Of a stretch of DNA of 64,000 nt, positions 37,144 through 41,467 are shown piece after piece. Under the pieces are notes generated by a model. It searched no databases and was not told where the DNA came from. It saw only the letters and a program-made list of their open reading frames with translations. Positions within the stretch are counted from its first letter, which is position 1, and each line of letters starts with the position of its first letter. Both the position numbers and the translations under genes were made by a program. The stretch lies in the NCBI RefSeq assembly GCF_000250985.1, contig NW_013524646.1, positions 1 to 64,000 on the forward strand. The letters are read 5' to 3'. The stretch comes from Nematocida parisii ERTm1 (taxonomy: Eukaryota > Microsporidia).

Positions 37144-37405
37144 ATCTATTCTATTTTATTTTGGTTGTTTACTGTGAGGTACCACGGGAAGAGAATTTTA
37201 GTGGGTTACTGTATACGGTAATAGTTTAATTTTTATTTTATCTGAGCATACTATGTGGTGATGAGTAACGGAAATTACTTAAATAGGAAAAGTTTAATTA
37301 CTTAAAAACCTGAAAATATAAAAATATAGCAGTAAATACTTATTACGCAATGTACAGTAAATTACAGAATATATTACACAATGTACAATAAGTTATATCG
37401 GGTTA
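37144..37405. other. Gene-free spacer upstream of the retrotransposon
   Basis: A/T-rich sequence with two CTTATTACGCAATGTACA-type words, and a TATCGGGTTAT variant of the ATAACCCGAA word at 37396-37406, next to the element's insertion site. No gene is seen. Confidence 0.55.
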
Positions 37406-37410
37406 TTTAT

Positions 37411-37459
37411 TGTAAGGCATAAATAATATTTTATTTTAATAAATCATGCATAGTTCACA
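37411..37459 (+). repeat. 5' LTR (49 bp)
   Basis: It runs TGTAAGGCATAAATAATA to CATGCATAGTTCACA. It is far shorter than usual LTRs (100 bp or more). It contains the ATG (37446) that opens the gag-pol frame, so U5-like sequence would be coding. Confidence 0.92.
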
Positions 37460-40400
37460 TGGGGGCAACTCCGGAGAGGCCAAATGGGCAAGAGCCATAA
37501 AAATATGGGAAAGGATGATAAAGATATGCGCAACTGAGTGGAGATACAAAAAAATAGTAGAGGAGGAAGATAAGATATGCCAGTTGTATGAGAAAGTAAA
37601 AGAGAATGAAGAGCTAACAGATATATGGATGGAAGTAATAGAAGGACAAGAGGGAGCAGAAGAAACTGCAGGAGTGATAAGCGGGATAGGCCAAAAGTTA
37701 AGAGAAAGGAGAGAAGAAGAAGAGGTGAACAGAAGAGACAGGGAAAAGGAAGAAAACCAGGAAATGGTAAAAACACTAATGACAATGGTAGAAGAGATGA
37801 AGAGAGAAAATGAGAGAAGAAGCGTAAAAGTGATGAAATGCTACACATGTGGTAGGTATGGACATACAAAGAATAACTGCAGAGAGAGAAGGAAGAATAG
37901 TGACTATAAGACAGGACCGGAAACGGAAAATAACAATAATAATAAAAGAAACTATTACGTGTCTAAATTTGAGGAGACTAAAGAGATCATAAATAAAAGT
38001 AGTGAAAAGGAAGATGAGACAGGATGGACAGAAGTAGGGAAAAAGGAAAAGGTGAAGAAGGATAAAGTAAGGAAGACAAAAGTAGAACACATAAAGAAGA
38101 CAAAGATACAACTAAAGGAAACAAACTCAGTACCCAAAACACATGAACTAGGCAAGGTAATGAGTGACAAGGAAGAACCAATGAGAAGGAAGATAATGCA
38201 AGGGAAGAGTCACGCGGATCTGGAAATGGAACAAATGATAGACAAATTAAACAAGGAATGGAAAGAAAAGAGAGAGGAGCTACTAATGGATGACAGTGAG
38301 GATGAAAGAGAAAGGGAAGAGCTAGAGAAAATGGAAGGAGAGATGCAATTTAGGGCAAAGGAAGAAGAAAAAGAAATAGGTGAAAGAAGTCCAGATGAAC
38401 AGGAAAAATTAAGACAAATACAGGAAGAATACCCAGAAGAGATAAAGACATTAGAAGAGATAGACAAGATAGAATACACACAAGCGACGATAGCAACAAT
38501 AGAGACAAAAGAGGGTGAAATGACAGAAGGTGGAGCAAGCAATGTGGCAATACCGCTACAGGAAAGGGCAAAGGAATTATTGAATCTATATGAAAGAACA
38601 CAAGTGATAAGGGAGAGTGATTCGAAGTGGAGAAACAGAGTATTTATGAAATTGGAGAAAACACCAGATGGGAAAGACAAGCTAAGGCTATTATCAGACA
38701 TGACACTATTGAATGAGATTACAAAGAGACAAGAATATGAGATACCAGATATGAAAGAGATGATAGAGAAGATGCAAGGAGCGAGATACTTTACGATAAT
38801 AGATTTGAAGGACGGATATTTCCAAATACAGACAAGAGAGGAAGATAGACATAAGACGGCATTTAGGATAATGGGAAAGACATATGAATACTGCAGCATG
38901 CCGATGGGTTATAAGAACGCACCGATGATATTCCAAGAGATGATGGACAGACTATTAAAGAAACTAATATGGAAGAACAAAGTAGCAGTATACATGGATG
39001 ACATAGTAGTATATACAAAAACAGAAGAAGAGCATATGGGCGTAGTAAGACAGGTGATGGATATATTGAAGGAAAACAGACTAAGGATTAATATTAAGAA
39101 GACAAGAGTATGTAGAAGAGAAGTAAAAATATTAGGACAGAGGATAAATGGAATGACACGAAAGCCGATAGAAATGAAGAGAAATGAAGCACTAAGATTC
39201 CCGAAACCAGTTACAGCGAAAGATATGAGAGGATTCCTAGGAAAGATGGGATATTATAGAGAATTTATACAACAATTTGCGATGTTGGAGATACCGCTGA
39301 GACAATTAATAACAGAAGCAGGAGATAGGAACGATAAGATTGTATGGGATGACTTAGCAGAGAAAGCATATGAGATAATGAGACAACAACTGAGAGATGC
39401 AAGAGAATTATTATTACCAGACCACAAGAAAGAATTTATAGTAACAACAGATGCAAGCGATTATGGAATAAGTGCAGTGATAGAACAAATAGGACCGAAT
39501 GGAGAAGAAGTACCAATAGCATGGAAGAGCAGAGCACTGTCACAGGCAGAGAAGAATTATGGGATTACAGAGAAAGAGATGCTAGCAGTAGTGTGGGGGA
39601 CAGAGAAGTTCCAGTACTACTTGAAAGGAAGAAAGTTCCACGTGAGAACAGATCATAAGGCACTAACAGAGATGAGAGTAAAGAGAGACTTTGGGAAAGG
39701 AAAGGCAAGGATAAGCAGGTGGTTAGAAAGACTAGGAGAATTTGACTTTACAATAGAATACAGACCAGGAATACAATTATTAACAGCAGACCTATTGAGC
39801 AGAATATACGAGAGAAGATTAACGGGATTCATTGACAAAAAGAACAGAACGGACAGCGCACGGAAGAGAGAAGAAACACTGATAAGAAAACACACAAGAG
39901 AAGAGGATGGAAAACTATACTGGTTATTAGAACATGGAGAACGGAAGGAAATACCGAAAGAAGAGGACAGAAGACAAATGATATGGAGAGCACACGACGC
40001 AACAGTACACAAGGGAACAAGGACAACAGTGGAACAGATTAAGGAAGATGGATACTATTGGAGAGGAATATGGGACGAAACAGAGAAAGTAATAAAAGAA
40101 TGCTTAACGTGCATACAGAATAACAGGAAAACAGCAGCAGGACACAGATTCATCGAAACAACAAGGAAATTAGAATTAGTAGCAATGGATATAATGAAAG
40201 AAGAGATTGAGGATAGATATATACTGGTAATGATAGACATGTATACAAGAGTAGGAAAAATAGTGCTACTAAACAATAAAAAGACAGAAGAAGTAATAAG
40301 AGGCTTAGAACGATTCATAAGGGAAAGAGGAAGACCAGAAGCAATAATGTGTGATAATGCGAAAGAATTTACAAGTGAAGAGATGGAGAAATACTTAGTT

Positions 40401-40883
40401 AACAAAGGAACCGGCCAGAGAAAGATAAGTATAGAAGCACATAACAGTAACGGAAGAGTAGAAAGGTTCATAAGGACAATAAGAGATGACTTAGCAAAGT
40501 TAGACAGGAAAAGAGAATTAAAGGATAGGCTAAGAGAAATTGAATTAAGTTATAACAACAGATACCACTCAGGGATACGGATGACACCAGAAAAAGCAAC
40601 AATGAACCAAGAAGCGATAAGTGAGAGAAATAGAGCAGATGGAGAATACGCAAAAACATTTAAGTTCAGAGAAAGGGAAAAATTCTATGAAGGTGAACAA
40701 GTACTAACAGCAAGAAAGGAGAATATGGGAAACAAGCAGAAGAGCGAACAAGGGAGATTCCTAAACAGAGGAGTAATAATAAAGAACTGTGGAAATGACT
40801 CATACATAGTGAGAGGAGAAGATGGAAAAGCGACGAAGCGATCATACAAAGAGATAAAGGGCATACCCCTGGCATATAAGTAA
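37446..40883 (+). CDS. Gag-Pol polyprotein (1145 aa, single frame)
   Basis: Gag ends in a CCHC zinc knuckle, CYTCGRYGHTKNNC (residues 132-145). A long K/E-rich linker follows with no visible D-S/T-G protease motif. Reverse transcriptase has FTIIDLKDGYFQI, SMPMGYKNAP and the YMDD box at about 516-519. RNase H has TTDASDYGI and TDHKALT. Integrase has an HH-CC zinc domain (about 845-890) and the D,D,E core (AMDIMKE, MCDNAKEF, NGRVERF). The order RT-RNase H-integrase is that of Ty3/gypsy. There is no frameshift between gag and pol, as in Tf1-type elements. The ATG lies inside the LTR; a downstream Met could be used instead. Confidence 0.93.
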   Translation: MHSSHGGNSGEAKWARAIKIWERMIKICATEWRYKKIVEEEDKICQLYEKVKENEELTDIWMEVIEGQEGAEETAGVISGIGQKLRERREEEEVNRRDREKEENQEMVKTLMTMVEEMKRENERRSVKVMKCYTCGRYGHTKNNCRERRKNSDYKTGPETENNNNNKRNYYVSKFEETKEIINKSSEKEDETGWTEVGKKEKVKKDKVRKTKVEHIKKTKIQLKETNSVPKTHELGKVMSDKEEPMRRKIMQGKSHADLEMEQMIDKLNKEWKEKREELLMDDSEDEREREELEKMEGEMQFRAKEEEKEIGERSPDEQEKLRQIQEEYPEEIKTLEEIDKIEYTQATIATIETKEGEMTEGGASNVAIPLQERAKELLNLYERTQVIRESDSKWRNRVFMKLEKTPDGKDKLRLLSDMTLLNEITKRQEYEIPDMKEMIEKMQGARYFTIIDLKDGYFQIQTREEDRHKTAFRIMGKTYEYCSMPMGYKNAPMIFQEMMDRLLKKLIWKNKVAVYMDDIVVYTKTEEEHMGVVRQVMDILKENRLRINIKKTRVCRREVKILGQRINGMTRKPIEMKRNEALRFPKPVTAKDMRGFLGKMGYYREFIQQFAMLEIPLRQLITEAGDRNDKIVWDDLAEKAYEIMRQQLRDARELLLPDHKKEFIVTTDASDYGISAVIEQIGPNGEEVPIAWKSRALSQAEKNYGITEKEMLAVVWGTEKFQYYLKGRKFHVRTDHKALTEMRVKRDFGKGKARISRWLERLGEFDFTIEYRPGIQLLTADLLSRIYERRLTGFIDKKNRTDSARKREETLIRKHTREEDGKLYWLLEHGERKEIPKEEDRRQMIWRAHDATVHKGTRTTVEQIKEDGYYWRGIWDETEKVIKECLTCIQNNRKTAAGHRFIETTRKLELVAMDIMKEEIEDRYILVMIDMYTRVGKIVLLNNKKTEEVIRGLERFIRERGRPEAIMCDNAKEFTSEEMEKYLVNKGTGQRKISIEAHNSNGRVERFIRTIRDDLAKLDRKRELKDRLREIELSYNNRYHSGIRMTPEKATMNQEAISERNRADGEYAKTFKFREREKFYEGEQVLTARKENMGNKQKSEQGRFLNRGVIIKNCGNDSYIVRGEDGKATKRSYKEIKGIPLAYK
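37460..37474 (+). other. Candidate primer-binding site
   Basis: TGGGGGCAACTCCGG starts immediately after the LTR's CA. TGG complements a tRNA 3' CCA, and the rest predicts a tRNA beginning GGCAACT, the acceptor start found in yeast-type serine tRNAs. No such tRNA is in the window, so the primer identity is inference. Confidence 0.65.
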
Positions 40884-40910
40884 GGAATGTCAGCTGAACC
40901 GAGAGCTGCC

Positions 40911-40922
40911 ATTGGGGGGGCA
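40911..40922 (+). other. Polypurine tract
   Basis: ATTGGGGGGGCA lies directly before the 3' LTR. The G7 run is the expected plus-strand primer, and the two bases CA between it and the LTR fit removal of two terminal nucleotides by integrase. Confidence 0.75.
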
Positions 40923-40971
40923 TGTAAGGCATAAATAATATTTTATTTTAATAAATCATGCATAGTTCACA
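40923..40971 (+). repeat. 3' LTR (49 bp)
   Basis: Base-for-base identical to the 5' LTR, followed by the TTTAT duplication. Confidence 0.92.
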
Positions 40972-40976
40972 TTTAT

Positions 40977-41467
40977 TAAACACTTAAACAACTACTTATT
41001 ACGCAATGTACAATAAATTATAGAATATATTGCACTATGTACACTATATAACTTACTTATTGCACTATGTATACTATTTATTACTTATTACGCAATGTAC
41101 AATAAGTTATAGAATATATTGCACTATGTACACTATATAACTTACTTATTACGCTATGTACAATAAGTTATAGAATATATTGCACTATGTACACTATATA
41201 ACTTACTTATTACACTATGTATACTATGTAACTTACTTATTACACTATGTATACTATGTAATAAGTCGTGTTCTATGTATGTACATTACTTATTACACTA
41301 TGTATACTATGTATTATATTGTGTATTACATTCTGTTGTATTTATACAATAATGCCTCTTATGACTTATTACTTATTATACATTGTATATTATATTTTAA
41401 TTAATTTTATTTTATTACTTATTACTTATTATACATTGTATATAAATATTTACTTTATTTTTATTTT
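40977..41467. repeat. Tandem copies of a composite ACTTATTACGC...ACTATGTACA unit
   Basis: Units of about 60-120 bp recur, containing CTTATTACGCAATGTACAAT, AAGTTATAGAATATATTGCA and CTATGTACACTATATAAC, at about 40995, 41085 and 41150. They then break down into shorter CTTATTACACTATGTATA words up to the start of the Rpn9-like gene. Confidence 0.82.

What the first reader, a model, noticed from the sequence alone, without database searches (positions are those of the whole stretch)
37406..40976. Intact Ty3/gypsy-type retrotransposon with LTRs of only 49 bp
Two identical 49-bp direct repeats with TG...CA ends, perfect TTTAT duplications outside, a TGG-starting candidate primer-binding site directly inside the 5' copy and a G7 tract two bases before the 3' copy all agree. 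LTRs are normally 100 bp to several kb and must carry promoter, polyadenylation and the R region. 49 bp leaves little room for R, so transcription or strand transfer may be unusual, for example with an external or internal promoter.
Basis: partly seen in the sequence, partly recalled or inferred. Interest (0 to 1): 0.85.

Follow-up and report, generated by a model that had tools for sequence, protein, structure and literature searches.

The report
Retrotransposon with LTRs of 49 bases
A small, likely microsporidian genome carries a full-length Ty3-type retrotransposon whose two terminal repeats are only 49 bases long, plus at least 46 lone copies of the same 49-50-base repeat, and this tiny repeat would likely hold a promoter, the protein's start codon and the transcript overlap needed for copying.

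Summary
Two identical 49-bp TG...CA repeats flank a 3,561-bp element inside TTTAT duplications. One 1,145-aa frame holds a zinc knuckle, RT, RNase H and integrase in Ty3 order; the best solved-structure match is Ty3. The primer-binding site is a perfect 15-nt complement of a tRNA-Pro(UGG) of the same genome.

Of 44 analysed, 20 have perfect 5-bp target duplications, and nearly all share a palindromic A-N5-T target. The LTR is not truncated.

49 bp need not be strange here. The host is probably a microsporidian; some of its genes have ATAAATA 20-45 bases before the ATG, and the LTR has it 27 bases before its own ATG, which opens the gag-pol frame. R would then be about 10-20 nt, as published for MMTV and Sire. 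One solo LTR landed just behind a host start codon, and its own ATG restores a 423-codon frame.

Transcript ends, polyadenylation and activity are untested. AATAAA is not enriched behind host genes. No protease was detected. Searches for relatives outside this genome failed. New variant of a known kind.

The parts
37406..37410 (.). 5-bp target-site duplication TTTAT, left copy
   Evidence: read directly
37411..37459 (+). 5' LTR, 49 bp, TG...CA
37418..37425 (+). TATA-like box CATAAATA in the 5' LTR (LTR positions 8-15), predicted core promoter
   Evidence: ATAAATA at -27 of the ATG; host genes have it at -45..-20 in 14 of 77 versus 1 and 1 in two control stretches; each of the 8 positions equals this LTR in 44 of 44 solo copies
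37438..37443 (+). AATAAA in the 5' LTR (LTR positions 28-33); the 3' LTR holds the same at 40950-40955; possible polyadenylation signal
   Evidence: read directly; role inferred; AATAAA is not enriched behind host stop codons
37446..37448 (+). ATG inside the 5' LTR (positions 36-38) that opens the gag-pol frame; an in-frame TAA lies 6 nt before it
   Evidence: its use as start codon is inferred
37446..40883 (+). single Gag-Pol frame, 1145 aa
37460..37474 (+). primer-binding site, perfect 15-nt complement of the 3' end of tRNA-Pro(TGG)+CCA, no gap to the LTR
37839..37880 (+). CX2CX4HX4C zinc knuckle (aa 132-145)
   Evidence: motif; Pfam zf-CCHC 19.8 bits, just under its cut-off of 20.8
38673..39146 (+). 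reverse transcriptase (aa 410-567, YMDD at aa 516)
   Evidence: Pfam RVT_1 E 1.2e-34
39345..39743 (+). RNase H (aa 634-766)
   Evidence: Pfam RT_RNaseH and RT_RNaseH_2
39960..40127 (+). integrase zinc-binding domain (aa 839-894)
   Evidence: Pfam Integrase_H2C2 E 1.5e-9
40164..40412 (+). integrase core (aa 907-989)
   Evidence: Pfam rve E 2.1e-9
40914..40920 (+). G7 tract, candidate plus-strand primer (polypurine tract), 2 nt before the 3' LTR
   Evidence: read directly; role inferred
40923..40971 (+). 3' LTR, 49 bp, identical to the 5' LTR
40972..40976 (.). 5-bp target-site duplication TTTAT, right copy
   Evidence: read directly

Best explanation
This is a full-length Ty3-type retrotransposon with genuine 49-bp LTRs and a tRNA-Pro-matching primer site, each LTR being predicted to act as a miniature host-style promoter with its own start codon and likely leaving an R region of only about 10-20 nt. 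Shown: the LTR ends, the PBS-tRNA match, the coding domains, the solo copies and their target sites. Inferred: transcription would start just before the LTR's ATG (LTR positions about 29-36), driven by the CATAAATA box at positions 8-15; AATAAA at positions 28-33 would then lie at or upstream of the RNA start, so that it could act mainly in the 3' copy; R would run from the start site to a cleavage site near the LTR end; tRNA-Pro(UGG) would prime the minus strand and the G7 tract the plus strand; the integrase would insert at palindromic TA-N5-TA-like sites; most insertions would later collapse to a solo LTR by recombination across the 49-50 bp.
For: Identical LTR pair, TSD, PBS and G7 tract in the canonical order. 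PBS: 15 nt to tRNA-Pro(TGG), next best 7, of 53 tRNAs. RT-RNaseH-IN order; best solved structure Ty3-G Gag-Pol, E 6.8e-61. 44 solo copies of 48-50 bp with unrelated flanks; 20 of 44 perfect 5-bp TSD against a mean of 1.35 (maximum 8) in 5000 re-pairings. Target: A at -6 in 42 of 45 and T at +6 in 42 of 45 insertions, background 0.38. Promoter: ATAAATA at -45..-20 in 14 of 77 host genes against 1 and 1 further up; 8 of 25 against 0 and 0 for window genes, 0 of 2000 shuffles reaching 8; LTR at -27. Solo LTR in L131: insertion behind codon 2 of a host frame cuts the old start (MNM, stop) and the LTR's ATG restores a 423-codon frame with the same box-to-ATG spacing. Young: five solo copies identical to this LTR. 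Short R has precedents: MMTV 11, Sire 10, RSV 21 bp (PMC3601003, passage).
Against: No RNA data. AATAAA is not enriched behind host stop codons (4 to 6 per 10-nt bin near and far, 76 gene ends). Most host genes (63 of 77) lack an exact ATAAATA in that stretch. 5'UTRs average 180 bp in another microsporidian, Edhazardia aedis (PMC2474625, passage). No protease detected. 24 of 44 solo copies lack a perfect TSD. Only one full-length copy was found, so the internal structure cannot be compared between copies. No structure signal in the RNA at the LTR/PBS junction (z -0.48). Host assigned by inference only.
Confidence: 0.75

Rival explanations
1. The true LTR is longer and both ends here are truncated, so 49 bp is only a remaining core.
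For: 49 bp is far below usual LTR lengths; another element of the same genome has 216-bp LTRs.
Against: TSD, PBS and G7 tract sit directly at the 49-bp borders; 44 solo copies share the borders while flanks are unrelated; the palindromic target abuts the same borders.
Confidence: 0.02
2. The LTR has no promoter of its own: RNA is made from a neighbouring host promoter or an internal one, with unusual strand transfer.
For: 49 bp is very short; no transcript data here.
Against: Host-type ATAAATA box at host-like spacing before an ATG; a start inside the element would not copy the LTR's front part (established retroelement biology); the L131 solo LTR stands in for a host gene start.
Confidence: 0.15
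3. The solo copies arose not by recombination of full insertions but by direct integration of LTR-only DNA; the 49-50-bp unit moves as a mini-element.
For: 44 solos analysed against one full copy and no other match to the first internal kilobase; the element with 216-bp LTRs has only one further partial LTR match, whereas longer LTRs are said to recombine more readily (PMC3281118, passage).
Against: Solo LTRs with TSDs are the ordinary product of LTR-LTR recombination; no mechanism for LTR-only integration is shown; the two families may differ in age and number of insertions.
Confidence: 0.15
4. The copy is a decayed or dependent element: it lacks its own protease and would need one from elsewhere.
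For: No protease family at E up to 10 in the first 405 aa and no D[ST]G motif in the whole protein; one full copy only.
Against: 1145-codon frame open, YMDD and zinc knuckle kept, LTR pair identical. No protease was detected in the first frame of L119 or in the L120 frame either, so the profiles may simply miss diverged ones.
Confidence: 0.2

Closest known systems
Ty3/gypsy (Metaviridae) elements of microsporidia (PMC4202319, passages and section 14 seen; PMC13174016, passages seen)
   Same: Ty3 domain order; one joined Gag-Pol polyprotein, as stated for microsporidian Ty3 elements in PMC13174016
   Different: 49-bp LTRs; the passages I saw give no LTR lengths, and placement in their three groups was not tested
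Saccharomyces Ty3
   Same: best match among solved structures (7q5b, E 6.8e-61); Pol order; 5-bp TSD (recalled for Ty3)
   Different: Ty3 has LTRs of about 340 bp and inserts at tRNA gene starts (both recalled); here 49 bp and AT-rich palindromic sites
SMART/FRetro129 and TRIM elements of plants (PMC3281118, passages seen)
   Same: very short LTRs (85 bp; solo averages 77-85 bp) and solo copies
   Different: those are non-coding, dependent elements; this one encodes RT, RNase H and integrase, and its LTR is shorter still
Ty1 of yeast (recalled)
   Same: gag start codon inside the LTR
   Different: Ty1/copia domain order; LTR about 334 bp

Membership tests
Ty3/gypsy LTR retrotransposons | Pol order RT - RNase H - integrase | tested here: met
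   aa 410-567, 634-766, 839-989
Ty3/gypsy LTR retrotransposons | RT closer to Ty3 than to retroviral RT | tested here: met
   Ty3-G Gag-Pol 209.5 bits; best retroviral Gag-Pol row 89.6 bits; by score only, no tree was built
Ty3/gypsy LTR retrotransposons | direct LTRs with TG...CA ends and a short target-site duplication | tested here: met
Ty3/gypsy LTR retrotransposons | PBS complementary to a tRNA 3' end | tested here: met
   15 nt to tRNA-Pro(TGG)
Ty3/gypsy LTR retrotransposons | Gag nucleocapsid zinc knuckle | tested here: met
   CX2CX4HX4C at aa 132; Pfam score just under its cut-off
Ty3/gypsy LTR retrotransposons | aspartic protease | tested here: inconclusive
   none found by Pfam and no D[ST]G; none found either in the L119 first frame or the L120 frame
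Ty3/gypsy LTR retrotransposons | placement in the Ty3 tree | not tested
   no outside relatives could be fetched (searches failed)
TRIM/SMART miniature LTR elements | no coding capacity | tested here: not met
   1145-aa frame
Tf1-type self-primed elements (recalled) | PBS complementary to the RNA's own 5' end instead of a tRNA | not tested
   not looked for directly; the 15-nt tRNA match makes it unnecessary

The most novel reading that the evidence does not exclude
The 49-bp LTR is a complete portable gene start: TATA box, RNA start, start codon and a 10-20-nt R in 49 bases. It is the smallest LTR I have seen that serves a coding element, it suffices for strand transfer and for solo-LTR formation, and solo copies have taken over the promoter and start codon of host genes (L131).
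Probability: 0.5. Interest if true: 0.75.

Novelty: new variant of a known kind. Interest (0 to 1): 0.62.

Why it matters
It would lower the bound for what an LTR must contain. In the passages I read the shortest LTRs were 77-85 bp, in non-coding elements (PMC3281118). Searches listed no title or abstract opening that reports a shorter LTR in a coding element; I saw listings only, apart from passages of the papers named here. Compact host promoters would allow compact LTRs, so genome reduction may shrink the genome's own parasites too. Pipelines that demand LTRs of 100 bp (a usual default, recalled) would miss such elements. If the solos arose by recombination, 49-50 bp of homology is enough for it here; PMC3281118 (passage) cites 50-100 bp for yeast. 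The L131 insertion is a natural test of the LTR as promoter plus start codon.

Tried and rejected
Truncated longer LTR: rejected by 44 solo copies with the same borders. Nearby solo pairs as tiny TRIM elements (L095, L103): rejected; neither the PBS string nor the G7 string occurs in any of the 44 fetched solo loci, and the second L095 copy has its own duplication (TATAC), read by eye. RNA fold at the LTR/PBS junction: no signal. Relatives in viral contigs: 3 pattern matches, none confirmed. Microsporidian SSU rRNA model: no match in this genome. PF17022 (polar tube protein 2): no match, but nothing rang in the control genomes either, so uninformative. AATAAA as a host-wide poly(A) signal: flat behind stop codons. 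Strand of neighbours of 23 solo copies: downstream neighbour antiparallel in 14 of 19, upstream parallel in 12 of 21; not significant, not used. PMC4202319 was searched for protease, solo and LTR details: no lengths in the passages seen.

Full report
1. The element. One search shows two identical 49-bp repeats (37411-37459, 40923-40971), TG...CA, inside TTTAT duplications; one search finds the pair independently. The whole is 3,561 bp. One frame runs from 37446 to 40883. Pfam gives RT, RNase H and integrase in that order; a CX2CX4HX4C knuckle is at aa 132 and YMDD at aa 516. Of 209 matched distinct PDB sequences the best is Ty3-G Gag-Pol (7q5b); the second, 4ol8, I recall as the Ty3 RT.

2. 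Priming. The Rfam tRNA model found 53 tRNA genes (63 of 160 candidates scored), and ARAGORN sees a tRNA in each of the 53 stretches. The 15 bases directly behind the 5' LTR are complementary to the 3' end of tRNA-Pro(TGG) with CCA; the next best tRNA matches 7. The G7 tract is two bases before the 3' LTR while the PBS has no gap, so end trimming by integrase is predicted at the U3 end only (inference).

3. Are the LTRs really 49 bp? The whole element as query finds one full copy and many LTR-sized matches (40 of 87 candidates scored, so counts are lower bounds). Pattern searches give 12 hits for the 49-bp form, 32 for a 50-bp form and 18 for an older copy, partly the same places; the reversed control gives 0 each time. 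I analysed 44 distinct solo copies: 32 are 50 bp, 11 are 49 and one is 48; 35 of 44 keep both TG and CA. 20 of 44 have a perfect 5-bp TSD, against a mean of 1.35 and a maximum of 8 in 5000 re-pairings of flanks; that is 10 of 13 copies with at most one change and 10 of 31 others. Flanks are otherwise unrelated. Two older complete solo copies and one half copy were then seen in the fetched flanks, which makes at least 46 solos. The first internal kilobase occurs once.

4. Target site. Around 45 insertions (44 solos and this element) A is at -6 in 42 and T at +6 in 42 (background 0.38 each), T at -7 in 32 and A at +7 in 38; both A and T in 39. The same holds in the 24 copies without a perfect TSD (22 and 22), so those too look like insertions. 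None of the 23 copies with 3-kb context lies inside an ORF of 120 aa or more.

5. Host. The genome is 3.98 Mb in 11 contigs; window G+C is 31%. For both ribosomal proteins tested the four best PDB matches are 7qep, 6zu5, 7qca and 6rm3, which I recall as microsporidian ribosomes; two TLC-type nucleotide transporters are present. The microsporidian SSU rRNA model and PF17022 gave no match. 'Likely a microsporidian' is an inference.

6. How 49 bp could suffice. Of 25 window genes, 8 have ATAAATA starting at -45..-20 and none in two stretches further up; none of 2000 shuffles reached 8. In 77 genes from window and loci it is 14 against 1 and 1 (genes are ORFs of 200 aa or more from the first ATG, so starts are approximate, and 63 of 77 lack the exact motif there). 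The LTR has ATAAATA at -27 of its own ATG (positions 36-38); this ATG opens the gag-pol frame, with an in-frame TAA 6 nt before it. In E. cuniculi 5'UTRs are under 7 nt (PMC2803860, abstract passage; section 7 read), though Edhazardia aedis averages 180 bp (PMC2474625, passage). R would then be about 10-20 nt; R of 11 (MMTV), 10 (Sire) and 21 bp (RSV) is stated in PMC3601003 (passage). Against this, AATAAA shows no enrichment behind host stops, so the 3' end signal is a guess.

7. A natural test. At L131 a solo LTR lies within GAATA duplications. Without it the joined flanks read an ATG followed by MNINLEQ...; with it the old ATG meets a stop after three codons, and the LTR's ATG reads MHSSQ-NINLEQ... 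for 423 codons. The old start has TATAAA at -28 (one search prints -29 because its slice included the A of the ATG), and the LTR has ATAAATA at -28 in this 50-bp copy. The gene has no Pfam match and only weak PDB matches, best E 0.11. Over all 44 solos, 5 LTR ATGs open 60 codons or more (three of the five ran to the edge of the fetched stretch) against 190 of 6325 random intergenic A-N5-T sites, binomial P 0.010; for 120 codons or more at least 2 of 44 (L131, L026) against 47 of 6325, P 0.043. This is suggestive, not proof; expression is unknown.

8. Comparison inside the genome. The protein finds four other Ty3-like loci at 26-36% identity. One of them (L119) has 216-bp repeats, 98% alike, and the first ATG of its first frame also lies inside the LTR, 29 nt from its end. 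That LTR has only one further, partial match at 87%. In the other three stretches (L120-L122) no LTR-like pair was seen. So the very short LTR is a trait of this family, and the short-LTR family left many more solos than the 216-bp one.

9. Limits. No relatives outside the genome could be found because the protein searches failed. There are no RNA data. 'Full-length' covers frame, motifs and ends; a protease is undetected.

Noticed in passing
L131:1506-1555 (G000:C6:113135-113184): A solo LTR with GAATA duplications lies behind the first codons of a host frame; its ATG restores a 423-codon frame with the same box-to-ATG spacing as the old start.
   Followed up: partly
L026, L103, L135: The ATG of three more solo LTRs opens frames of 365, at least 73 and 115 codons; the next in-frame Met is 14, 7 and 6 codons on.
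   Followed up: partly
44 solo copies; window 37404-37410 and 40972-40978: Near-invariant palindromic insertion site, A at -6 and T at +6 in 42 of 45 each, around a 5-bp duplication.
   Followed up: yes
L119 (G000:C1:937433-941219): Second Ty3-like element with 216-bp repeats, 98% alike; its coding part is split over several frames. No TGG stands directly behind its 5' repeat.
   Followed up: partly
L120, L121, L122: Three further RT-RNase H loci at 26-30% identity to this element; no LTR-like pair seen. Part of L120 reads N.
   Followed up: no
37460-40922: The inner part of the element is A-rich on the coding strand (45.8% A, 11.4% C) against 34.4% A in the window.
   Followed up: no
37324-37424 and 40980-41260: The element sits in or beside an array of AT-rich repeats of about 60-90 bp that resemble each other on both sides.
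   Followed up: no
37890-38660: The stretch between zinc knuckle and RT (aa 150-400 measured) is 46% K, E, R and D and shows no protease motif.
   Followed up: partly
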